Positions 33,108 to 43,856 of a stretch of 64,000 nt of DNA are shown piece after piece. The notes under the pieces are model-generated. The model did no database searches, was not told the origin of the DNA, and saw only the letters and a list, made by a program, of their open reading frames with translations. The DNA comes from Pelagicoccus enzymogenes (GTDB lineage: Bacteria > Verrucomicrobiota > Verrucomicrobiia > Opitutales > Opitutaceae): contig NZ_JACYFG010000051.1 in NCBI RefSeq assembly GCF_014803405.1, forward strand, positions 372,001-436,000, read 5' to 3'. The position numbers and the translations under genes are program-made. Positions within the stretch are counted from its first letter, which is position 1. Each line of letters starts with the position of its first letter.

Positions 33108-33575
33108 TCAGAAGACGGTCAGGCCAAGATTGCTGAGATAGGAGTAAAGGGCTTTTGACTGGTAGAGGTTTATCATCGCGGGAAACGATTTTCCATTTCG
33201 CATCTCGAAGCGGAGGGTGACATGCCGCCCAGGGGTTGCATCGCGGCTGACGCCTACTATATCTTGGCTTGCGTATTCAACTTTTGGAGCGAATCGGTAG
33301 CTTATGCGAATTGTTTGGCCATTGAAGTGGATGGTGCTCGGATAGCTTAGTAGGCTTTTCGTGAATACGAAAAGGTATGCTGTGAGCAAACCGAGCAGGA
33401 TGGCTCCGAAGACGATGCCCTTGAAGGCTGCACCGTTGGCAAGCTGGGCGTAGGGGCTGAGCTGGAGGAAGACGATGGAAGCGAGGAAAAAAGGGATGGA
33501 GAGAGCAAGGCCGGGGATGATGGCCTTGGTCGCGGAAGTCCCGAGGAATCCGGTAATAGGGTTATGGAGGGTCAT
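33108..33575 (-). CDS. Membrane protein of unknown function, 155 aa
   Basis: Three hydrophobic helices in the first half (IIPGLALSIPFFLASIVFLQ; FKGIVFGAILLGLLTAYLFVF) and a beta-rich C-terminal half (STIHFNGQTIRISYRFAPKVE; HVTLRFEMRNGKSFP), a layout like bacterial PH-domain membrane proteins. The ATG at 33575 is used; the longer frame to 33632 starts in less coding-like DNA. Confidence 0.6.
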   Translation of the reverse strand: MTLHNPITGFLGTSATKAIIPGLALSIPFFLASIVFLQLSPYAQLANGAAFKGIVFGAILLGLLTAYLFVFTKSLLSYPSTIHFNGQTIRISYRFAPKVEYASQDIVGVSRDATPGRHVTLRFEMRNGKSFPAMINLYQSKALYSYLSNLGLTVF

Positions 33576-33755
33576 TGGGAGAGTATTTGGATCCTTTGAG
33601 CTGAAGGTTAGGAAAGCGGTGGGAGTTGGCAAGTGAGTCTTTCTTCTTAGGGTTTAGCCCTCCTTTGTTAGATGATCGGAACGGTTTAAAGGCCAGGGGC
33701 GGCGCTTGTTGCCGTCCGCGTCGGGTTGAGCCTTGTTCTGCGGCGCACGGGAGAG

Positions 33756-33780
33756 GCGTCTTCGGAGAACCCGCGCCACC
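33756..33780 (-). repeat. REP-like palindrome, type G
   Basis: GCGTCTTCGGAGAACCCGCG then CCACC, in the gap 5' of imuA; one of the few copies not placed beyond a stop codon. Confidence 0.6.
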
Positions 33781-33844
33781 TTTTGCGACTCGCTAAAAAG
33801 GCCTTGGACGGCGGATGTCCGAGGGGGTGGTGTAGCTTGGGTGG

Positions 33845-34663
33845 GTGACGGTCGAAGCGGGCGAGGTAAGTTTTTTTGAGGGGCAAATTCTTGGGGATGA
33901 AGAGCCTAGGAATTTGGCGGATTCGCAGGCCTTTGGCGGCGTTGACGCGGCTGCGGGAATGCAGTGGAATGATGGCATGGCGACCGCTCGTGCAGATGCT
34001 GAGTCGGCCAGTCTGGAGCAAGCCTTTGATGGGCTGGGAGTTGAGCGCGTGGCGCCGGCTGAATCGGAAACTCTAGGGACTGGTGTCGACTCGTTGGACG
34101 AAGCCCTGGAAGGGGGCTTGCGCTCGGGGCTGCTCACGGAGCTGGCGGAGAGCGGGGCCAGCTCGGGCGGGCAGGTGCTCTTGCTGCACTTGTTGGCGGC
34201 CATGCGGCGGGCTCAGCGTTTTGTGGCTTTGGTGGATGGGGCGGATGGCTTCGATCCGCAGTCGTCGCCGCCGGAGTTGCTGGAGCATTTGCTGTGGGCT
34301 CGCTGTCGCAGCGCGGGGGAGACCATGAAGGTGGCGGACGCTTTGCTGCGGGACGAGAACCTAGGTATGGTGCTGGTGGACCTGCGGGGCTGCGGGGAGC
34401 GGGAGCTGCGACGGGTGAAGGCGGCGGACTGGTACCGCCTGCAGCGCCTAGCGGAACGGTCGGGGGCCTTCGTATGCGTGTTTACGCCGCAGGCGATGAT
34501 CCCGAGCGCTCAGGTTCGGGTGCGTTTGGATGGGCGGTTGTGTATCGGAAATATGGATATGAGTGTGCGGGAGCTGGGTTGTGAGTTGGAGTTCGAGGTT
34601 TTGCGCAAGCGGACGCGGGAACGGGGCGGGTTTGCTCAGTTGGTGAGAAGGGCTGTGGGATGA
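33845..34663 (+). CDS. imuA: ImuA-like RecA-fold mutasome subunit
   Basis: 272 aa, GTG start. The RecA-like core begins after an acidic, apparently disordered N-terminus of about 75 residues; LGTGVDSLDEALEGGLRSGLLTELAE and QVLLLHLLAAMRRAQRFVALVDG correspond to the RecA/ImuA ATPase fold. In Caulobacter and Pseudomonas ImuA works with ImuB and DnaE2 in SOS mutagenesis. The three genes lie in the usual order imuA-imuB-dnaE2, 48 and 114 bases apart. No LexA site is recognisable upstream. Confidence 0.85.
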   Translation: MTVEAGEVSFFEGQILGDEEPRNLADSQAFGGVDAAAGMQWNDGMATARADAESASLEQAFDGLGVERVAPAESETLGTGVDSLDEALEGGLRSGLLTELAESGASSGGQVLLLHLLAAMRRAQRFVALVDGADGFDPQSSPPELLEHLLWARCRSAGETMKVADALLRDENLGMVLVDLRGCGERELRRVKAADWYRLQRLAERSGAFVCVFTPQAMIPSAQVRVRLDGRLCIGNMDMSVRELGCELEFEVLRKRTRERGGFAQLVRRAVG

Positions 34664-34711
34664 AGCTTTTCTATTTGTGTGTTTTGAATTTGGATACGAG
34701 GAGGATGCAAG

Positions 34712-36343
34712 GTGTTCGCTGTATTGCAGATTCCTAGGCTGGCCTTGCAATCGGTTTTGAGAGGGGACGTGGATCGGGTTGCTGGGAGTCGCGGCGCGAG
34801 GCCGCTTCCTACGGATCGGGTTGTGGGATCGCGACCAAGGTCGCTCCTACCTGTTGTGGTGGTGGATGCGGAGGCGCGGAAGCCGGTAGTGCTAGAGGCG
34901 ACGGCGGAGGCGGAGCGGGAGGGCGTGCATGCGGGGCTTTCGGTGCCGCAGGCTTTGGCCCGTTGTCCGGAGCTGGTGGTGCGGCATCGCTCGCGGCAGG
35001 CGGAAGCCTCGCTGGAGGAGCTGTTGTTTGCCTTGGCCTATTCTTTGTCGCCGCGGGTGGAACGGGATGGCGCGGGGGAAGTGCTGGTGGACCTGAAGGG
35101 GGCAAAGCTGGAGGAGGCGCTGCAGCGTTGCGGGCAGATCGTGGCGGAGCTGTCGGCAATGGGCATTTGCGTGGGGATTGGCGTGGCGGAGAGTTGCGTG
35201 GTGGCGGCGTTGGCGGCGAAGTCCTTCGACTGGGCTCAGGATGCCCTTGCGGGCAGAGTGTTGTTGGTGGGAGGGGAGAATCGCGTGACGAGCACGCTCC
35301 TACAGAAAGACAAATCGCCCGCGGAGCGGCCGATCCACTATGTGGGCTTGGCGGAGTTTGTGGAGGGTTTGCCGATTGGGGATGTGCCGTTTGGAGCGGA
35401 TCCCGCGTCGCGGGCTCGATTGTTGGATGTATTGAGCAAGTGGGGGGTGCGTACGGTGTCGGCTTTTGCGAAGTTGAAGCGGGCGGCGGTGGGGGCGCGG
35501 CTGGGCGTGGAGGGGCTGCGGCTTTGGGATCGGGTGACGGGCAAGGAACAGCGGGTGGTGGCGGTGGCGGAGCTGCCGGCGGAGTTTGAGGAGTCGTGGG
35601 AATTTGAATACGACGTGGATTCGGTGGATCCGCTTTTGTTTTTGCTGAGGCGCTTTTTGGACACGCTGTGCCTGCGGATGCGGGTGGCTCACAAGGTGGC
35701 GGCCTTTGCTCGGGTGGAGCTGGGCTTGGCGTATGGGGAGCCGCTCGTGGTGGAGCAGAAGTTGCCGGAGGCCACGGCGGACGAGGGGGCTTTGTTTTCG
35801 CTGCTGGCGGCTCGGCTGGAGGAGGTGGAGACGGATTCGCCGGTGGCGAGGATTTCTCTTTGGCTGGAGGTTGTTGACTTCAAGCAGCGGCAGTTGGGCT
35901 TGTTCGAGAGTAGCTTGAAGAATCCGTATCGCTTCACGCAGACCTTGTCTCGGGTGGCGGGGATCGTGGGTGAGGATCGAGTGGGGCGTCCGGTGTTGGA
36001 AGAGGATGGACGTCCGGATGGGGTGAGGATGGAGGAGCTGCCGGCTGCGGTGCCGCCGGTGGGCGAGCTGGATTTGGGGCGGATGTTTGGCATGCCGCTG
36101 CGGCGGTATCGGCCGGGCTTGGCGGCGTCGGTGGAGTTCCAGGGGCGTCAGCCGATTTGGATACAGTGCGAAACGGTTTCCGGCTTCGTGAAGGCGGTGC
36201 GTGGCCCGTGGCTGAATTCGGGGCATTGGTGGGAAGAAACGGGGAGCTGGAACTGCGTGGAGTGGGATGTGGAGCTGAATAAGGGGGGCGTGTATCGGAT
36301 TTGCAAGGACGCGGATGGGTGGAAGGTGGAGGGGAATTATTAA
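34712..36343 (+). CDS. imuB: ImuB Y-family polymerase-like protein carrying three translated REP palindromes
   Basis: 543 aa from a GTG preceded by AGGAGG. ImuB resembles Y-family polymerases without catalytic activity and bridges DnaE2 and the beta clamp. The N-terminus FAVLQIPRLALQSVLRGD and the later PVVVVDAEARKPVVLEATAE match the family but are separated by about 25 extra residues (GSRGARPLP and GSRPRSLLP), which are translations of type A and type C REP palindromes. A third palindrome gives NRVTSTLLQ at about residue 192. A region around GQLGLF may be the clamp-binding motif. Confidence 0.88.
   Translation: MFAVLQIPRLALQSVLRGDVDRVAGSRGARPLPTDRVVGSRPRSLLPVVVVDAEARKPVVLEATAEAEREGVHAGLSVPQALARCPELVVRHRSRQAEASLEELLFALAYSLSPRVERDGAGEVLVDLKGAKLEEALQRCGQIVAELSAMGICVGIGVAESCVVAALAAKSFDWAQDALAGRVLLVGGENRVTSTLLQKDKSPAERPIHYVGLAEFVEGLPIGDVPFGADPASRARLLDVLSKWGVRTVSAFAKLKRAAVGARLGVEGLRLWDRVTGKEQRVVAVAELPAEFEESWEFEYDVDSVDPLLFLLRRFLDTLCLRMRVAHKVAAFARVELGLAYGEPLVVEQKLPEATADEGALFSLLAARLEEVETDSPVARISLWLEVVDFKQRQLGLFESSLKNPYRFTQTLSRVAGIVGEDRVGRPVLEEDGRPDGVRMEELPAAVPPVGELDLGRMFGMPLRRYRPGLAASVEFQGRQPIWIQCETVSGFVKAVRGPWLNSGHWWEETGSWNCVEWDVELNKGGVYRICKDADGWKVEGNY
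34788..34850 (-). repeat. Two REP-like palindromes inside imuB (type A 34788-34812, type C 34828-34850)
   Basis: Type A variant GTCGCGGCGCGAGGCCGCTT then CCTAC and type C ATCGCGACCAAGGTCGCTCC then TAC. Spaced by ACGGATCGGGTTG-like text, as in intergenic clusters. Both read through in the imuB frame. Confidence 0.9.
35280..35303 (-). repeat. REP-like palindrome inside imuB, type B
   Basis: ATCGCGTGACGAGCACGCTC then CTAC, translated as NRVTSTLLQ with flanking bases, in a surface-loop position between LLVGG and RPIHYVGLAEF. Confidence 0.9.
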
Positions 36344-36345
36344 AA

Positions 36346-36457
36346 CTCTTCTTCTGCTTCTTCATCTTAATCTCCTTCTAAAATGGAACGGAAGAGATGG
36401 GAAGCGAGTAGGAGAGGGTTGTGGAGATGAAGATTAAGATGAAGAAGGAGAAGAAGA
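36346..36457. repeat. GA-rich inverted repeat, copy 1
   Basis: The left arm CTCTTCTTCTGCTTCTTCAT, running to about 36374, is mirrored by the right arm at about 36431-36457 (ATTAAGATGAAGAAGGAGAA), a stem of about 26 bases with one or two mismatches and a roughly 55-base loop. It fills the imuB-dnaE2 gap, and its right arm supplies the AAGGAG upstream of the dnaE2 start. A second copy is at 51432-51524. Confidence 0.75.
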
Positions 36458-39400
36458 TTGGGTAGTTATGTTGAGTTGCATGGGCGGTCGGCGTTTTCGT
36501 TTTTGCGGGGGGCGTCGCAGCCGGACGAGTTGGCGGAGGCTTGCGCGGATCGGGGCGTGGGGGCGATGGCTCTTTGCGATCGGGGCGGCGTTTATGGTTC
36601 GGCTCGCTTTCATACGGCGTGCCGCGAGTTGGGACTGAAGGGGATCGTGGGCTGCGAGCTGCCGATGGCGGATGGTACGGCGCTGCCGGTTATCGTTAAG
36701 TCGCGGGTGGGGTATCAGAATCTTTGTCGTTTGCTGACGGATACGCACTTGGGTTTGGGGGATGATCGGGGTGGTGGTTTCGCGACCAAGGTCGCTCCTA
36801 CGGATCGGGTTGGACTATCGCGGCACAAGGCCGCTTCCCACAAGGAGTTGAAGAAGGGGGAGGGGCGTGTGGCTTGGGAGGACTTGGCGGGGCGGGTCGA
36901 GGGGCTGTTGGCTTTGACGGGGGACGAGGAGGGGGTGTTGCGTCCGTATTGGGAGCGTGGTGACAAGGATGGGATGCGGGAGCGGGTGAGTTCTTTGCGG
37001 GATGTGTTTGGCGAGGGAAATGTTTTTGTGGAGTTGCAGCGGCGGCATGAGAGGGGCGAGGAGCGACTGGTGTCGGGGCTACGTGACTTGGCGGCGGCGG
37101 AGGGCTTGCCGCTGGTGGCGACGAATGGGGTGAGCTATGCGCGGCCGCAGGGACGGGCTTTGATGGATGTGTTTACCTGTTTGCGGGAGAAGGTGAAGTT
37201 GGACGAGGCAGGGGGCTTGTTGAGCCGGAACGGGCAGCGGTTCGTGAAGGCTCCGGAGGCGATGCGTTATCTGTTTCGCGATATTCCGGAGGCGGTGGAG
37301 AATACCTTGCGCATTGCGGAGCGGGTGGAATTTGGCTTGGAGAATTTGGGCTATCAGTTTCCGAGCTATGAGGTGCCGCGTGGTGAGTCGATGGATACGT
37401 TTTTGCGCAAGGTGGTGTTTGCGGGGGCGCGGAAGCGGTTTCGCGGGGAGCCGAACGAGAAGACGCGGCGGCAGATGGAGCATGAGTTGGCGGTGATCGC
37501 GAAGCTGGGGTTTTCGGGCTATTTTTTGATCGTTTGGGATTTGGTGAACTTTTGTCGGGACAATGGCATCATGGCTCAGGGGCGGGGCAGTGCGGCGAAT
37601 AGCGTGGTGTGCTTTTGCTTGGAGATCACGCCGGTGGATCCGGTGGGGGCGGGCTTGTTGTTTGAGCGTTTTTTGAATGAGGAACGGCGGAGCTGGCCGG
37701 ATATTGATATCGACTTGCCGAGCGGGGAGCGGCGCGAACAGGTGATCCAGGAGGTGTATCGGAGGTATGGGCGCCATGGGGCGGCGATGACGGCGAACGT
37801 GATCACGTATCGGCGCAAGAGCGCGACGCGTGAGGTGGGCAAGGTGTTGGGCTTCGAGGAGGAGTTTTTGGGGCGGTTTTCGTCGCTTTTTGGCAGCCAC
37901 AACTACGAGCATGGGGTGGGTTTCGAGGAGCAGCTGGAGAAGTCGGGTATCGCGAAGGAGCATCCGCGAGCGAAGGCATTGTCGGCCTTGTGCGTGCAGG
38001 TGCTGGGCTTGCCGCGGCACTTGGGGCAGCATTCCGGCGGGATGGTGATTTGTCAGGGGGCTTTGGATACGGTGGTGCCTTTGGAGCCGGCGTCGATGCC
38101 GGGGCGTTCCGTGTGCCAGTGGGACAAGAATGACTGCGAGGATTTGGGAATCGTGAAGGTGGACTTGCTGGGTTTGGGGATGATGGCGGTGATGCAGGAC
38201 ACGATTGAGACGCTGAATCGTAAGGGCGTGGATATCGATATGGCTCGTATCCCGAAGGATGATACGGCGACGTTCGAGATGATGCAGCGGGCGGACACGG
38301 TGGGTGTCTTCCAGATCGAGAGCCGGGCTCAGATTGCGACTTTGCCGCGCATGAAGCCGAAGTGTTTTTATGACGTGGTGGTGGAAGTGGGGATTATTCG
38401 GCCGGGGCCGATCCAGGGTAAGATGGTGCATCCGTATCTGGAGCGGCGGGAGGATCCGAGCAAGATTGAGTATATTGACGAGCGCTTGGTGGAGGTGCTG
38501 GAGCGGACGCTGGGGGTGGCTTTGTTTCAGGAGCAGATCTTGAAGGTGGCCATGGTGATGGCGGACTTTAGCGGCGGGGAAGCGGAGGAGCTGCGGCGGG
38601 CGGTTAGCACCTTTAGTACCAACGAGAAGCGGATGAACAAGGTGCTGGGCAAGCTGGTGAAGGCGATGCGGGATCGGGGCGTAGAAGAGGAGAAGGTGAA
38701 GAGCGTGGTGCAGTCGGTCTCGAGTTTTGCGCATTACGGCTTTCCGGAGAGCCATGCGATCTCGTTTGGCTTGTTGGCTTATGTGAGCACGTATTTGAAG
38801 TGTCACTACCCGGAGGAGTTTTTTGTGGGGCTGCTGAACAATCAGCCGATGGGCTTTTATTCGCCGGCGACTTTGATCCAGGACGCGAAGCGGCGGGGGA
38901 TCCGGGTGAGAGCGGTTTGCGTGATGGAGTCGCGGTGGGAGTGTGTTGCGCAGTGGAAGGGTGAAGGTGTAAGGGTTGAGAGTGAGGGGAACCACGGATG
39001 GACGCGGATGGGCGCGGATGGGGATCGGGATGCTCGGGGAGATCGCGTGACAAGCACGCTCCCACAGGATCGGGATGTGGAAGAGATCGCGGCACAAGGC
39101 CGCTTCCCACGGGGTCGGGATGATGCGGCGTGGCGCGAGCGCCAGCCCTACGGGGATGGGGTTGGTGCTTTGGTTGAGGGATCGCGACCAAGGTCGCTCC
39201 TACCTGGGGAGATTCGTTTGGGTTTGGTGATGGTGAAGGGGCTTTCGCGGGAGAAGGGGAAGGCGATGGTGGCGGAGCGGGATCGCTTGACGTTTCGTTC
39301 GTTGAAGGATTTTCGCTTTCGCACGCGGTTCAATAAGGAGGAGCTGCGGCAGCTGGCTTCGATCGGGGCCTTGAATTGCTTTTGCGGGGATCGGCGCAGG

Positions 39401-39907
39401 GCGCTTTGGGAGGTGGAGTCGCTGTTGGACGAGGATGACTTGTTTGCTCGGGTGGAGGAGCCGGAGGGGGAGGGCTTGAGCCCCTTGGAGGTGATGACAC
39501 ACCTGGAGCGTTTGCAGGCGGACTACGCGGGGGTGGGCGTGACGGTGGGCACGCATCCGATGGCGTCGCTGCGAAGCGAGTTAGGAGGCGTTTGGCGCGC
39601 GTGCGATTTGGATACGACGCCGAATGGGGCTCGGGTGAAGATTGCGGGGCAGGTGATTTGCCGTCAGCGGCCGGGCACGGCGAAGGGCTTTGTGTTCATC
39701 TCGATGGAGGACGAGACGGGAATTTCCAATACGATTGTTTTGCCGCAGCTTTTCGAGAAGTGTCGGCTGACGATTACGCAGGAGAAGTTTCTAGTGATCT
39801 CTGGCGTGCTACAGCGTCAGAAGGGGGTGACGCATGTGAAGGCGGATCGTATCGAGGCCTTGGTGACGGGGGGCGTGCCGGCGGCGCGGAGTTATGATTT
39901 TCACTGA
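36458..39907 (+). CDS. dnaE2: Error-prone DNA polymerase DnaE2 with six translated REP palindromes
   Basis: 1149 aa C-family polymerase used with ImuAB in damage tolerance. Begins with SYVELHGRSAFSFLRGASQP, the PHP domain, with a polymerase core containing GRGSAANSVVCFCLEITPVDP and WPDIDIDLPS with the catalytic Asp pair, and a C-terminal OB domain (VKIAGQVICRQRPGTAKGFVF). The start must be TTG 36458, because TGA lies 36 bases upstream in frame. The protein is longer than usual; two extra blocks (about residues 107-135 and 848-917) coincide with REP clusters. Confidence 0.93.
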   Translation: MGSYVELHGRSAFSFLRGASQPDELAEACADRGVGAMALCDRGGVYGSARFHTACRELGLKGIVGCELPMADGTALPVIVKSRVGYQNLCRLLTDTHLGLGDDRGGGFATKVAPTDRVGLSRHKAASHKELKKGEGRVAWEDLAGRVEGLLALTGDEEGVLRPYWERGDKDGMRERVSSLRDVFGEGNVFVELQRRHERGEERLVSGLRDLAAAEGLPLVATNGVSYARPQGRALMDVFTCLREKVKLDEAGGLLSRNGQRFVKAPEAMRYLFRDIPEAVENTLRIAERVEFGLENLGYQFPSYEVPRGESMDTFLRKVVFAGARKRFRGEPNEKTRRQMEHELAVIAKLGFSGYFLIVWDLVNFCRDNGIMAQGRGSAANSVVCFCLEITPVDPVGAGLLFERFLNEERRSWPDIDIDLPSGERREQVIQEVYRRYGRHGAAMTANVITYRRKSATREVGKVLGFEEEFLGRFSSLFGSHNYEHGVGFEEQLEKSGIAKEHPRAKALSALCVQVLGLPRHLGQHSGGMVICQGALDTVVPLEPASMPGRSVCQWDKNDCEDLGIVKVDLLGLGMMAVMQDTIETLNRKGVDIDMARIPKDDTATFEMMQRADTVGVFQIESRAQIATLPRMKPKCFYDVVVEVGIIRPGPIQGKMVHPYLERREDPSKIEYIDERLVEVLERTLGVALFQEQILKVAMVMADFSGGEAEELRRAVSTFSTNEKRMNKVLGKLVKAMRDRGVEEEKVKSVVQSVSSFAHYGFPESHAISFGLLAYVSTYLKCHYPEEFFVGLLNNQPMGFYSPATLIQDAKRRGIRVRAVCVMESRWECVAQWKGEGVRVESEGNHGWTRMGADGDRDARGDRVTSTLPQDRDVEEIAAQGRFPRGRDDAAWRERQPYGDGVGALVEGSRPRSLLPGEIRLGLVMVKGLSREKGKAMVAERDRLTFRSLKDFRFRTRFNKEELRQLASIGALNCFCGDRRRALWEVESLLDEDDLFARVEEPEGEGLSPLEVMTHLERLQADYAGVGVTVGTHPMASLRSELGGVWRACDLDTTPNGARVKIAGQVICRQRPGTAKGFVFISMEDETGISNTIVLPQLFEKCRLTITQEKFLVISGVLQRQKGVTHVKADRIEALVTGGVPAARSYDFH
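36779..36841 (-). repeat. Two REP-like palindromes inside dnaE2 (type C 36779-36801, type A 36817-36841)
   Basis: Translated in the PHP domain as FATKVAPT and SRHKAASH, between the family-conserved LLTDTHLG and VAWEDLAGRVEGLLALTG. Separated by GGATCGGGTTG, the same spacer seen in intergenic clusters. Confidence 0.92.
39042..39203 (-). repeat. Four REP-like palindromes inside dnaE2 (types B, A, D, C)
   Basis: B 39042-39065, A 39086-39110, D 39125-39151, C 39181-39203, all with the same orientation and read in frame (DRVTSTLPQ, IAAQGRFPR, AAWRERQPYGDG, GSRPRSLLP). Preceded at about 38993-39023 by an ACGGATGGACGCGGATGGG element, also translated. The block lies between RAVCVMESRWECVAQW and LGLVMVKGLSREKG, which are adjacent in other DnaE2 proteins. 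Confidence 0.92.
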
Positions 39908-39941
39908 GGGGACGAAGAGATGAAGGTGGATCCGGTTGCTT

Positions 39942-40032
39942 ATCGCGTGACAAGCACGCTCCCACGGGTGGGATTGCGTTTATCGCGGCATAAGGCCGCT
40001 TCCCACGTGATCGCGACCAAGGTCGCTCCTAC
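39942..40032 (-). repeat. Cluster of three REP-like palindromes (B, A, C)
   Basis: B 39942-39965, A 39982-40006, C 40010-40032, all in the same orientation, in the dnaE2-methyltransferase-like gap, heads towards the stop of the minus-strand gene at 40039. Confidence 0.9.
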
Positions 40033-40038
40033 AATGTG

Positions 40039-40710
40039 CTACTTGGTGGCTTGGTAGAGGAGGTAGGCGGCGCGTTTGGCTCCTTCGTGGACTTTGGCGG
40101 GGATGGCTTTGACTTGGAAACCGGCTTGCTTGAGGCGGGCGGCGAATTTTTCGTCGGGACCGGCGGACCAGAAGATGGCGCAGCCACCGGGCTTGAGCAC
40201 GGACTTGATGGTGCGGACTCCGGATTTTGAATACAGGTTGGCATTGCCTTTTTGCACCATGGCGACGGGGCCGTTGTCGATGTCGAGCAGGAGGCAGTCG
40301 TAGCTTTCGGGTTCGGCTTTGCGGATAACGGCGGTGGCGTCGGCGACTTGGAGTTGCACGCGGGGGTCGTCGAGGCATTTGCCGTTGAGCTCTCGTAGGT
40401 GCTCGCGGTTCCAGTCGATGACTTCGGGGGCGAGCTCGAGGACTTCGATGCTGGCGTCGGGGCCTGCGGCTTCGAGGGCGGTGGCGAGGGTGAAGCCGAG
40501 TCCGAGTCCGCCGATGAGCAGGCGGCTGGGCTGGTCTTTGGGGAGCGATTCGCCGCCGAGCTTGCCGAGCAGCTTTTCGGAAGCGGCGGCCTTGGAGTGC
40601 ATGAGCTCTTGGCCGCTGAAGTTGATGGAATAGGCTCCGTCTTGCTCGTAAAGGGCGAGCACGCCTCCGGTGGCGGGACGGGTTTCGGCGAGTTTGATGC
40701 GTGGTTTCAA
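40039..40710 (-). CDS. Spermidine-synthase-like SAM/dcSAM-binding protein
   Basis: 223 aa. The core is a class I Rossmann fold: RLLIGGLGLGFTLATAL is the nucleotide-binding loop, IEVLELAPEVIDWNREHL the acidic second strand, DDPRVQLQVADATAVI the third, and YDCLLLDIDNGP the fourth. The pattern resembles the SpeE family minus its N-terminal part, so an aminopropyltransferase or methyltransferase is possible. The only start in a suitable place is a TTG at 40710. Confidence 0.75.
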   Translation of the reverse strand: MKPRIKLAETRPATGGVLALYEQDGAYSINFSGQELMHSKAAASEKLLGKLGGESLPKDQPSRLLIGGLGLGFTLATALEAAGPDASIEVLELAPEVIDWNREHLRELNGKCLDDPRVQLQVADATAVIRKAEPESYDCLLLDIDNGPVAMVQKGNANLYSKSGVRTIKSVLKPGGCAIFWSAGPDEKFAARLKQAGFQVKAIPAKVHEGAKRAAYLLYQATK

Positions 40711-40824
40711 GGAGAAGCTTGGTTAGGTGCTAGCTGTTTAGGCTGTAGGTTTGAAACCGGGATGGACGCAGATGAGGGGGGATTTGGCGAGGGTTTGTTT
40801 TGGGGATGATGGGGGGCGCACAAG

Positions 40825-40952: not shown

Positions 40953-42026
40953 TTATAGGGTGACGGGGTGGCCGTCTTGGCGGGCGGAGGTGTAGATGGC
41001 CTCTATCAGGGCGATGGCGCGGCGGGATTCGGGGCCGTCGAGGGTGGGTTCGCGTCCCTCTGTGAGGGCTGTGGTGAACTCTTGGAAATTTCTGAGGTGT
41101 TGGCGGTAGTCGATGGAGCCGGGGTCGGCGGCGCCGGCTCCGCCTTTGGGGGCGTTGGCTCCGTATTTGGCGAGGATCGCTTGGTCTTCGGGTTGTTCTG
41201 TTTGGAAGTCCCAGACGGAGAGGGTTTCGTCGGTGAGGAAGATGGATCCGGTGGAGCCGCAGAGCTGCACTTGGGCGGGGTGTCCGGTTTTTGAATACGC
41301 GGTGGTTGTGCCTTCGATGGTACCGAGGGCTCCGTTCTTGAATTTGAGGGTGGCGACGGCGAGGTCTTCGACTTCGATGCCTTCATGGGTGGCGGTCTTC
41401 ATGTAGGCGGAGACGGATTCGACGTCGCCGGCGAAATGGAGCAGCATGTCGATGGTGTGGATCGACTGGTTCATGAGGGCGCCGCCGCCGGAGAGGGACC
41501 AGATGCGTCGCCAGATGTCGGCGTCGTAATACTCTTGGGTACGGAACCATTTGATGTAGGCGGAGGCGAGGGTGAGCTGGCCGAGGCGTCCGGCGTCGAC
41601 GGCTTTTTTGGTTTCTTCAACTGCCGGCGTGAAGCGGCGGGGGAAGATGCCGCAGATCTTGACGCCGTGCTTTTGGCAGGCGGCGAGGGCGGCGTCGGTG
41701 CGAGCGACGGTGGCCTCGATGGGTTTCTCGCAGAGGATGTGCTTGCCGGCGGCAGCGGCGGCTTCGATGGGTTCGAGGTGGTAGCCGCTGGGGGTGGCGA
41801 TGGCGACGATGTCGAGCTCGGGGTCGGCGAGAAAGTCGTTGTAATCTGAATACGCCTTGCAGGGGTGCTGGGAGGCGAATTTGTCGGCTTTTTCTTGGGA
41901 GCGGCTGTAGCAGGCGACGAGTTTGGCGTCGGCCATGTCGGCGATGGCTTTGGCGTGGAACTGGGCGATCATGCCGAGTCCGACGATTCCTATTCCGTAG
42001 GGTTTGGATGCGTTTTGCTTGGCCAC
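40953..42026 (-). CDS. Cytosolic Gfo/Idh/MocA family oxidoreductase
   Basis: 357 aa, GTG start. N-terminal Rossmann domain with GIGIVGLGMIAQFHAKAI, the conserved CEKPIEAT holding the catalytic-region Lys, and a C-terminal alpha/beta domain (GALMNQSIHTIDMLLHFAGD, with the His in the usual active-site position). No signal peptide, unlike the paralogue at 13216. It probably oxidises or epimerises a sugar or inositol-like compound; the substrate is unknown. The NRAMP-like gene is 150 bases upstream on the same strand, with REPs in between. Confidence 0.88.
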   Translation of the reverse strand: MAKQNASKPYGIGIVGLGMIAQFHAKAIADMADAKLVACYSRSQEKADKFASQHPCKAYSDYNDFLADPELDIVAIATPSGYHLEPIEAAAAAGKHILCEKPIEATVARTDAALAACQKHGVKICGIFPRRFTPAVEETKKAVDAGRLGQLTLASAYIKWFRTQEYYDADIWRRIWSLSGGGALMNQSIHTIDMLLHFAGDVESVSAYMKTATHEGIEVEDLAVATLKFKNGALGTIEGTTTAYSKTGHPAQVQLCGSTGSIFLTDETLSVWDFQTEQPEDQAILAKYGANAPKGGAGAADPGSIDYRQHLRNFQEFTTALTEGREPTLDGPESRRAIALIEAIYTSARQDGHPVTL

Positions 42027-42065
42027 GGGTTGCTCGGGTTTTGAGGTTTTGATCGGGTTGTGTGG

Positions 42066-42181
42066 TCGCTGGCTGAAGCTCAGCGCTACGGGATCTGGTT
42101 GTGATTTGGTTGATGCGGCGTGGCGCGAGCGCCAGCCCTACGGATCGGGTTGTGGTGTCCGCTGGGACAGCGGACGCTACC
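42066..42181 (-). repeat. Cluster of three REP-like palindromes (H, D, E)
   Basis: H 42066-42090, D 42115-42141, E 42157-42181. The head of the E copy overlaps the stop codon of the NRAMP-like gene (TAG at 42179-42177). Confidence 0.9.
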
Positions 42182-43856
42182 TTTCGAGTTTGGCGTTTTT
42201 GCTTTTTAGGTAGAAGTGGCCGATGACGATGGCGATGCCGAAGGTGATGAGGAAGGTTTTGCCGATGGCGAAGTCGCCGATGGTTTTGCTCCAGGCGGTG
42301 GCCACGGAGGCGGCGCCGGTGATGAGGAGGCTGGTGCCCATGAGGACGTTCCAGATGACGCGGGCGCGGCCGGTGGGACGGGCGTCGCCGAGCAGCTTCT
42401 TGGAGTTCATCATGAGGAAGAAGGCAAGGAAGGCGACGGGGAGCAGGGTGTATCCAAAGACTGAGGTCGGCACCGCGAGGTAGGCTTTTGAGGAGCCGCT
42501 CCAGAGGAAGGGCCAGAGGATGCCGACGGCGCCGGCGAGGGTGCCGAGCTTGTGGTGGATGCCGCCGTGGGGGAACTTGAACATCTCGCAGATCACGAAG
42601 CCGGAGATGAGCATGAGGATGGAGATGGTGGAGAGGGCCATGGCGAAGACGCCGAAGCCGAAGACGATGTGGGCCATGGTGGGGCCGACGAGGGGCTCGA
42701 GGGAGGTGGCGAATTGCATGTTGCTGCGGTTGAGCAGCATGGCGGCGACTTGCAGCTCGCCGTTTTCGACGGGGGCGGCGGCGAGCTCTCCGGTGGAGCG
42801 GGCGGCGAGCATGCCTTGGATCTGGCCGGCTTGGGCGGAGAGGGACGCGTCTTGGGTGATGGCGAGCTGGCCGTTTTCTTCGACGAGCACGCCGTCGTAG
42901 GGTTGAGCGTGGAAGAGGTAGCCGGAGGCGATGACGATACAGGCGGTGGCGATGAGGAAGGGGACCACCATGCCGGTGGAGAGGTCGAAGATGGCGAGGC
43001 CACGGTGGGTCTTGCCCCAGCCCTTGGCTCGCATGGAGAAGGGCAGGAGGAAGGTCATGTTGATGCCGACGGCGGCGGAGGCGGCGGCCACGATGACGTC
43101 GCGTTGCTTGGAGAGTACGGTGTCGGTCCAGAATTGCTGGGCGGCGGGGTTGTTGATGCTGTCGAGGAATTCGCGGTAGCCGGCGCTGGGCTTGAAGATG
43201 AGGGAGGGGTTGGGGATGAAACCGACGAGGATTTCGCCGAAGGGGAGGCCGGAGTCTGTGAGGGCGAGCTTGATGGCGACGCCGATGAAGGAGAAGACGA
43301 TGACGCCGACGATGATTTTCAGGATGGTCTCGTAGATGCGGATTCCGATGCCTTTTCCGCCGTAGAGGAAGGTGATGCCGACCACGGGTATGAGGATGGC
43401 GATGGAGGTGATGAGCTTGGTGCTGGTGGCGTCGGCGTTGCCGATGAGGCCGGGGGCGATGTTTTCGGTGATGGCTCCGTAGGCGAGGGAGAATTGGGGC
43501 AGGGCCCAGGTCATGTTGGCGGCGAGGGTGGCGAGGATCCAGCCCCAGGCGAGCACGGGGTTGATCTGGGTGCGCATGCCGTGGAAGACGCTTTCCTTGA
43601 TGGAGAGGGACACGTAGCTGATGGCGGCGAGCATGATGACGCCCATGAAGAGGGCGCACATTTGCACCCAGAGCATGGAGTAGCCGCCGACGACGCCGAG
43701 GAAGAGGGCGCCGGCGAGGGAGCCGCCGCCTAGGGTGATGGCGCTTTGCAGCCAACCCGGGCCGGAGAGGCTGACGTAGGTTTTGAGGGTGGCGGCGGTG
43801 CCTTGGGCTTGGGCTTCGGTGATGCGTTGGGCGGTATTGTCAGGATCTAGGGACAT
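42177..43856 (-). CDS. Divergent NRAMP-family transporter
   Basis: 559 aa with about 11-12 hydrophobic helices. The NRAMP fold is evident from SGPGWLQSAITLGGG in helix 1 and GINMTFLLPFSM in helix 6. The hallmark metal-binding DPGN (helix 1) and MPH (helix 6) are missing, replaced by GGGS and NMT at the matching places. A long insert (EENGQLAITQDASLSAQ to SNMQFA) forms an extra-membrane loop. Related proteins are common in Planctomycetes and Verrucomicrobia and annotated as divalent metal transporters, but the missing residues make that doubtful. Confidence 0.82.
   Translation of the reverse strand: MSLDPDNTAQRITEAQAQGTAATLKTYVSLSGPGWLQSAITLGGGSLAGALFLGVVGGYSMLWVQMCALFMGVIMLAAISYVSLSIKESVFHGMRTQINPVLAWGWILATLAANMTWALPQFSLAYGAITENIAPGLIGNADATSTKLITSIAILIPVVGITFLYGGKGIGIRIYETILKIIVGVIVFSFIGVAIKLALTDSGLPFGEILVGFIPNPSLIFKPSAGYREFLDSINNPAAQQFWTDTVLSKQRDVIVAAASAAVGINMTFLLPFSMRAKGWGKTHRGLAIFDLSTGMVVPFLIATACIVIASGYLFHAQPYDGVLVEENGQLAITQDASLSAQAGQIQGMLAARSTGELAAAPVENGELQVAAMLLNRSNMQFATSLEPLVGPTMAHIVFGFGVFAMALSTISILMLISGFVICEMFKFPHGGIHHKLGTLAGAVGILWPFLWSGSSKAYLAVPTSVFGYTLLPVAFLAFFLMMNSKKLLGDARPTGRARVIWNVLMGTSLLITGAASVATAWSKTIGDFAIGKTFLITFGIAIVIGHFYLKSKNAKLER

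What the first reader, a model, noticed from the sequence alone, without database searches (positions are those of the whole stretch)
34788..39203. Nine REP-like palindromes are translated in frame inside imuB and dnaE2
Short palindromes that elsewhere in the window are intergenic occur inside two adjacent SOS-polymerase genes: three in imuB (34788, 34828, 35280) and six in dnaE2 (36779, 36817, 39042, 39086, 39125, 39181). Both frames stay open. Each palindrome sits where the family sequence is interrupted, for example between LLTDTHLG and the VAWEDLAGR block, and between WECVAQW and LGLVMVKG in DnaE2. Different palindromes are read in different frames (SRHKAASH, FATKVAPT, DRVTSTLPQ, GSRPRSLLP). 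All nine have the same orientation, heads on the antisense strand, which avoids the TAG in a GTAG head. This resembles Rickettsia palindromic elements but with GTAG-headed REPs in a different phylum. The effect on the proteins is unknown.
Basis: partly seen in the sequence, partly recalled or inferred. Interest (0 to 1): 0.85.

Follow-up and report, generated by a model that had tools for sequence, protein, structure and literature searches.

The report
Mobile palindromes translated inside repair polymerases
Short mobile DNA palindromes have repeatedly landed, in frame, in what look like floppy loops of two error-prone DNA polymerase genes in a group of marine bacteria; the phenomenon was described in 2013, but the reuse of the same loops and a link to replication direction are useful additions.

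Summary
Nine GTAG/GTGG-headed palindromes (REPs) lie in open frames inside imuB (three) and dnaE2 (six) of a Pelagicoccus-like genome (Verrucomicrobiota, Opitutales). One element type is read in all three frames and the surrounding protein is under purifying selection, so these are mobile DNA elements tolerated in maintained proteins. They sit in four loops; across the eight held genomes of the genus these loops hold different palindromes, other repeats, or nothing. The kind is not new: a 2013 paper (PMC3733652) reported GTAG REPs inside genes, most of them in Opitutus terrae (same order), many in replication and repair genes including DnaE2. Most likely these are replication-polarised REP insertions, presumably by RAYT transposases, that survive in permissive loops. 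Their effect on the polymerases is untested and probably near neutral. Four literature searches aimed at the strand rule showed no earlier report.

The parts
33845..34663 (+). imuA-like (RecA-related) gene upstream of imuB; no REP found inside
   Evidence: ORF; weak RecA Pfam match, 23.6 bits, below the cut-off of 27; name partly inferred from gene order; REP scans
34712..36343 (+). imuB, 543 aa
   Evidence: Pfam IMS 51 bits; dN/dS outside inserts 0.15-0.30 against six congeners
34763..34852 (+). ImuB loop 1, filled with REPs; short in outgroups (approximate bounds)
   Evidence: alignments; residues 20-44 pLDDT <50
34788..34812 (-). REP, type B-like (3 mismatches), GTAG head
   Evidence: read in frame 1
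34828..34850 (-). REP, type A, GTAG head
   Evidence: frame 2
35228..35329 (+). ImuB loop 2, variable in length, with one REP (approximate bounds)
   Evidence: low-confidence stretches at residues 175-179 and 198-205, not over the REP residues themselves
35280..35303 (-). REP, type C (2 mismatches), GTAG head
   Evidence: frame 1
36344..36457 (.). imuB-dnaE2 spacer holding a large inverted repeat with partial copies elsewhere
   Evidence: Rfam matches all below the gathering scores
36458..39907 (+). dnaE2, 1149 aa
   Evidence: Pfam DNA_pol3_alpha, finger, PHP, HHH_6, OB; best solved relatives are Pol III alpha subunits; dN/dS 0.05-0.14 outside inserts
36755..36862 (+). DnaE2 loop 1 (residues 100-135), filled with REPs
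   Evidence: empty in 3 of 8 congeners and in the outgroups; pLDDT <50
36779..36801 (-). REP, type A, GTAG head
   Evidence: frame 0
36817..36841 (-). REP, type B, GTGG head
   Evidence: frame 2
38957..39205 (+). DnaE2 loop 2 (about residues 835-915): REP array plus another repeat, between two predicted beta strands
   Evidence: about two residues in outgroups; pLDDT <50 at 835-914
39042..39065 (-). REP, type C, GTGG head
   Evidence: frame 1
39086..39110 (-). REP, type B, GTGG head
   Evidence: frame 0
39125..39151 (-). REP, type D, GTAG head
   Evidence: frame 0; same element at this loop in L008
39181..39203 (-). REP, type A, GTAG head
   Evidence: frame 2
39942..40032 (-). three intergenic REPs (C, B, A) downstream of dnaE2, same orientation

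Best explanation
The nine elements are GTAG-superfamily REPs, small non-autonomous palindromes thought to be spread by RAYT (Y1/HUH) transposases. They enter DNA with a fixed polarity relative to replication (head on the C-rich strand). Most copies that hit genes are lost; those that keep the frame and fall in a length-tolerant, probably disordered loop survive and are translated. Four such loops in ImuB and DnaE2 have served as landing sites repeatedly in this genus, and arrays then grew by further insertion or tandem duplication. The encoded peptides of about 8-9 residues have no fixed reading frame and are most likely near neutral. Shown: element identity, in-frame position, frame independence, selection on the host genes, turnover between species, strand rule, Y1 transposase genes next to three REP types. 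Inferred: RAYT as the cause, coupling to the fork (read from GC skew), translation of the segments, disorder, neutrality.
For: 216 REPs genome-wide, 0 for the reversed pattern. One element type read in all three frames. Different palindromes in the same loops across congeners, empty sites in others. DnaE2 loop 1 varies in length across the family (21 of 48 sequences, some redundant, with 10 or more extra residues; 16 of the 21 from outside the genus). pLDDT below 50 at DnaE2 100-135 and 835-914 and ImuB 20-44. dN/dS 0.05-0.30 outside inserts. Strand rule: 91 of 103 non-inverted copies outside the locus, inverted pairs 24 of 46 as expected, locus 12 of 12; DG1235 16 of 17, G072 6 of 6. Of 8 Y1 loci, two have REPs at both ends (B in L043, E in L044) and one on one side (D in L042). 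An HrpA-type and a DinG-like helicase carry REPs in loops that vary between congeners.
Against: No Y1 gene directly next to a type A or C REP was found among the eight loci. The strand rule is weaker in places: 7 of 10 on the extra 280 kb of C35 (counted by eye), 26 of 32 between convergent and 3 of 5 between divergent genes, 21 of 26 for type D. SDUM812002 has a sense-headed REP in ImuB loop 2, though with what looks like a degenerate inverted partner. Permissive loops alone do not explain the large excess in these two genes. The AlphaFold2 alignments were shallow (26 and 9 sequences), both models have further stretches below 50 without REPs (for example DnaE2 534-553 and 992-1030, ImuB 411-467), and low pLDDT does not prove disorder.
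Confidence: 0.74

Rival explanations
1. The inserts are adaptive: REP peptides tune the ImuB-DnaE2 mutasome and give strain-specific mutation rates (close to the mutator speculation of the 2013 paper).
For: Strong excess of REPs in these two genes and, in the 2013 paper, in repair genes of several species.
Against: Content is not conserved between species and three of eight congeners have an empty DnaE2 loop 1; the same element is read in any frame; loop 1 also varies in length in other genera.
Confidence: 0.12
2. Arrays grew mainly by local tandem duplication or exchange between REP arrays, with only one or two transposition events per loop.
For: Copies are head to tail, several with a GATCGGG(T/A)TG-like spacer before them (sequence; motif counts).
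Against: Neighbouring copies are of different types (C, B, D, A in loop 2) and the set differs between species.
Confidence: 0.3
3. Orientation is set by coding constraint: avoiding the TAG of a sense-strand GTAG head.
For: Type A, A2, D and E consensus heads in sense have a stop in one of three frames.
Against: Intergenic REPs show the same bias; between co-directional genes on the C-rich strand 32 of 33 heads follow the skew and are therefore sense. Five intragenic REPs in genes on that strand are sense-headed. Type C has a stop in one antisense frame.
Confidence: 0.03
4. The segments are removed at RNA or protein level, or the genes are pseudogenes.
For: None found.
Against: Frames are open in the DnaE2 and ImuB sequences aligned (imuB not found in G069), dN/dS is well below 1, no Rfam family reaches its gathering score in 33500-40800, and insert lengths and contents vary.
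Confidence: 0.03

Closest known systems
Intragenic GTAG REPs described in 2013 (PMC3733652), notably in Opitutus terrae
   Same: GTAG/GTGG-headed palindromes inside genes, in frame, many in replication and repair genes including DnaE2; clusters in Thauera and R. conorii encode 43-82 aa; a host in the same order (sections 5, 15 and part 1 of 17 read)
   Different: imuB and DG1235 have 0 occurrences in its text and Pelagicoccus 0 (listing); its supplementary gene lists were not seen. [quoted passage not shown] Reuse of four loops across a genus and the strand rule are additions
Rickettsia palindromic elements (RPE)
   Same: Palindromic repeats inserted in frame in unrelated functional genes; RPE-4 and RPE-6 are counted among short CGTC repeats in the 2013 paper
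   Different: The classical RPEs are about 150 bp and encode a conserved peptide (passage of PMC10969869); these are 22-27 bp, GTAG-headed and read in any frame
RAYT/TnpA-REP and REP/BIME systems
   Same: Y1 transposase genes next to matching REPs
   Different: Insertion inside coding loops; at this locus single and head-to-tail copies rather than inverted pairs
IS200/IS605 (IS608) single-strand transposition
   Same: Element polarity tied to replication, as described for IS608 (passages of PMC6006769)
   Different: These are REPs without their own transposase; which template strand is used was not determined

Membership tests
GTAG superfamily of REPs | Unpaired GTAG (or GTGG) tetranucleotide at one end of a short stem-loop, stem 5-13 bp | tested here: met
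   definition from PMC3733652
GTAG superfamily of REPs | Extra unpaired dinucleotide after the head and a 3-bp tail (GTAG-1/2 type) | tested here: met
   Types A and C read GTAG/GTGG-GA-stem-loop-stem-GAT directly from the sequence; features; type B has three extra bases, and D and E were not fitted
GTAG superfamily of REPs | Many dispersed copies in the genome | tested here: met
   216 pattern matches, 0 reversed
GTAG superfamily of REPs | Association with RAYT genes | tested here: met
   Of 8 Y1 loci, B REPs at both ends of L043, E at both ends of L044, D on one side of L042; none next to A or C
GTAG superfamily of REPs | Mobility by RAYT | not testable with these tools
   Needs transposition assays
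Intragenic GTAG REPs (2013 kind) | REP wholly inside a real protein-coding gene, frame kept | tested here: met
Rickettsia palindromic elements | About 150 bp element encoding a conserved peptide | tested here: not met
   22-27 bp; three frames used by one element
Rickettsia palindromic elements | In-frame insertion tolerated by a functional protein | tested here: inconclusive
   dN/dS outside inserts 0.05-0.30 shows that the genes are maintained; protein function was not assayed

The most novel reading that the evidence does not exclude
REP insertion is polarised by the replication fork throughout these genomes, and the loops of the ImuB-DnaE2 mutasome act as genus-wide landing pads whose contents turn over faster than the species, possibly because damage-induced single-stranded DNA or transcription exposes exactly these SOS genes when the RAYT is active; the resulting strain-specific loops could modulate the mutasome.
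Probability: 0.2. Interest if true: 0.72.

Novelty: new member of a known kind. Interest (0 to 1): 0.45.

Why it matters
It gives a clean comparative case (eight congeners with full, partial and empty sites) for a question left open in 2013: why intragenic REPs favour replication and repair genes. The strand rule offers a test of how REPs move, since a nearly symmetric palindrome can hardly acquire an orientation bias except from something that reads its head. It also warns annotators that variable loops in DNA-repair proteins may be mobile DNA.

Tried and rejected
A first REP pattern was mis-specified and gave only background. A codon-usage gene caller failed on this operon and was replaced by a length-greedy ORF set, which is noisy. 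Of the 37 REPs (types A-E, up to four mismatches) that it put inside ORFs in 2.05 Mb, I accepted 14 as intragenic: nine here, two in an HrpA-type helicase, one each in a DinG-like helicase, an ABC-F protein and a U32 peptidase. Three of those five others have three mismatches, and the second HrpA copy lies outside the piece scanned by Pfam. Dropped, 23 of 37: those upstream of the first recognised domain (four in two sulfatases, one each in an RNR, an ankyrin protein, a GH95, an HhH-GPD glycosylase and a PGK ORF, two in a TIM-barrel ORF); those in ORFs or pieces of ORFs without a Pfam match (four at no more than two mismatches, plus one near the N-terminus of an ORF on C2 scanned only in part); those with four mismatches (TonB receptor, LTD protein, a 166-aa ORF, an ABC transporter); one at the C-terminus of a glycosidase ORF; and two in a spurious ORF at window 41617-43755.

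A generic perfect-stem hairpin scan found 16 hits in 23 genes against a mean of 5.5 in codon shuffles; it misses types B and C. Folding of the arrays as single-stranded DNA was unremarkable: one of five stretches had z below -2. Leading-strand identity could not be fixed: too few marker motifs and no 16S match, so I speak of the C-rich strand only. imuB was not found in the G069 stretch. The PDB fold search added nothing beyond Pol III alpha.

Considered and rejected: a protein-level repeat (frames differ), TAG avoidance, removal at RNA level (no Rfam match at gathering score).
Full report
What is there. The window lies in a 6.2-Mb draft genome whose closest dnaE2 relatives in genome contigs are two Pelagicoccus strains and DG1235; 'Pelagicoccus' for the window's genus is inferred from that. 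imuB (34712-36343) and dnaE2 (36458-39907) are intact ORFs with the expected domains. They belong to a dispersed set: 216 matches of one degenerate pattern in the genome and none of its reverse; with up to four substitutions, 188 copies of seven types in 2.05 Mb against 2 in the reversed sequence.

They are DNA elements, not protein repeats. The B element is read in all three frames and the A element in two. Outside the inserts, dN/dS against six congeners is 0.05-0.14 for dnaE2 and 0.15-0.30 for imuB (dS is above 1 in two of the six comparisons for each gene), so the genes are maintained.

The landing sites. The eight held genomes of the genus and three distinct outgroup genomes were aligned for DnaE2 (K14 and G014 look like the same record). 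ImuB was found in seven of the eight. DnaE2 loop 1 is empty in 3 of 8 congeners (DG1235, G069, G070) and in the outgroups; it holds A+B here, a single A in G025, C+B in G067, what looks like a degenerate B in SDUM812002, and D plus an interrupted C in SDUM812005. Loop 2 has about two residues in the outgroups and G069. It holds C, B, D, A and another repeat here; A2, B, D in SDUM812002; E plus a CACGAAG-type repeat in G067 and SDUM812005; two CACGAAG-type repeats in DG1235; a degenerate E in G070; and a short unclear insert in G025. ImuB has two comparable loops. In 48 DnaE2 sequences (some redundant), 21 have at least 10 extra residues at loop 1 (5 from the genus, 16 from outside; I did not test the latter for REPs), 8 at loop 2 (seven from the genus) and 8 at a third loop. 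In L160 and L026 the third-loop inserts of 117 and 123 bases fold end to end as inverted repeats. AlphaFold2 gives pLDDT below 50 at DnaE2 100-135 and 835-914 and at ImuB 20-44, with smaller stretches beside the REP in ImuB loop 2; other stretches of both models are low too.

Orientation. In G000, of 161 REPs (types A-D with variants, at most three mismatches), 103 lie outside this locus and not in inverted pairs; 91 have the head on the C-rich strand (binomial p 3.5e-16). Inverted pairs give 24 of 46, as they must; the locus gives 12 of 12. Between co-directional genes the rule holds in 32 of 33 when the genes lie on the C-rich strand and 12 of 14 when on the G-rich strand, so the gene's direction does not set it; between convergent genes it is 26 of 32, between divergent ones 3 of 5. 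By type: A 26 of 26, A2 7 of 9, B 21 of 23, B2 4 of 6, C 12 of 13, D 21 of 26. A further 280 kb gave 7 of 10 (counted by eye). In DG1235 it holds for 16 of 17 and in SDUM812005 for 6 of 6 (stretches were chosen around pattern hits, and four of the six are from the contig stretch with this operon). The five other accepted intragenic REPs obey it while being sense-headed. A palindrome is nearly symmetric, so an orientation bias points to a process that reads the head and is coupled to replication, as described for single-strand IS elements (passages of PMC6006769). That RAYTs do it here is inference: of eight Y1 loci, two have REPs at both ends (B, E) and one on one side (D).

Concentration. Nine of 14 accepted intragenic REPs fall in 5.1 kb of 2.05 Mb (expected 0.04; using all 37 raw ORF calls p is still 1e-15; both treat copies as independent, and 88% coding is assumed). 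Permissive loops explain survival; they do not by themselves explain why this operon stands out. The HrpA-type and DinG-like helicases show REPs in loops that vary between congeners (five and six relatives).

What is known. PMC3733652 (passages, sections 5 and 15, and part 1 of section 17 read; supplements not seen) describes intragenic GTAG REPs in several species, most in O. terrae, many in DNA synthesis and repair genes including DnaE2, and speculates about mutator effects. Its text has 0 occurrences of imuB and DG1235, and of lagging, leading, replichore and GC skew. Passage searches of PMC2817692, PMC3116915, PMC8266576 and PMC6006769 and paper searches (listings) showed no report of a replication-strand bias of REPs; searches (listings) showed no report of this case. 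Most subscription papers are not in that library.

Verdict. A real, well-supported example of a known phenomenon, with two useful additions (loop reuse across a genus, strand rule), an unsupported orientation argument in the original finding, and unknown functional effect.

Noticed in passing
window 36344-36457: The imuB-dnaE2 spacer is a large CTTCTTC/GAAGAAG inverted repeat; one arm has partial copies near window 51437 and at about 367597 of contig C50.
   Followed up: partly
window 38990-39020: A translated CCACGGATGGACGCGGATGGGCGCGGAT-type repeat in DnaE2 loop 2, with two partial copies on C5: a second repeat family in the same loop.
   Followed up: partly
L010 dnaE2 loop 2; also L009 and L189: CACGAAG-type repeats translated in the same loop in congeners.
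   Followed up: partly
L009 dnaE2 loop 1: What looks like a type C REP interrupted by a further palindrome, with the frame still open.
   Followed up: no
L160 and L026, DnaE2 third loop (near residue 1005 of the window protein): Inverted repeats of 117 and 123 bases, in frame, in DnaE2 of other genera; this loop is also low-confidence in the window protein (992-1030).
   Followed up: partly
L012 and L193, imuB near residue 172: A GTAG-headed perfect 9-bp palindrome in ImuB loop 2 of outgroups, in sense orientation.
   Followed up: no
window 34772, 34814, 36803, 42051, 42143: GATCGGGTT occurs 38 times in 2.05 Mb (about 16 expected from base composition), 33 on the G-rich strand; only 6 of 38 are within 40 bases of a REP, yet it recurs between the elements in these loops. 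Role unknown.
   Followed up: partly
G000:C6:80442-85010: A glycoside hydrolase ORF ends in a REP inverted pair read in frame as about its last 22 residues.
   Followed up: no
G000:C6:265737-266471: A REP near the N-terminus of an HhH-GPD (base-excision-repair type) ORF, upstream of the domain, so perhaps not coding.
   Followed up: no
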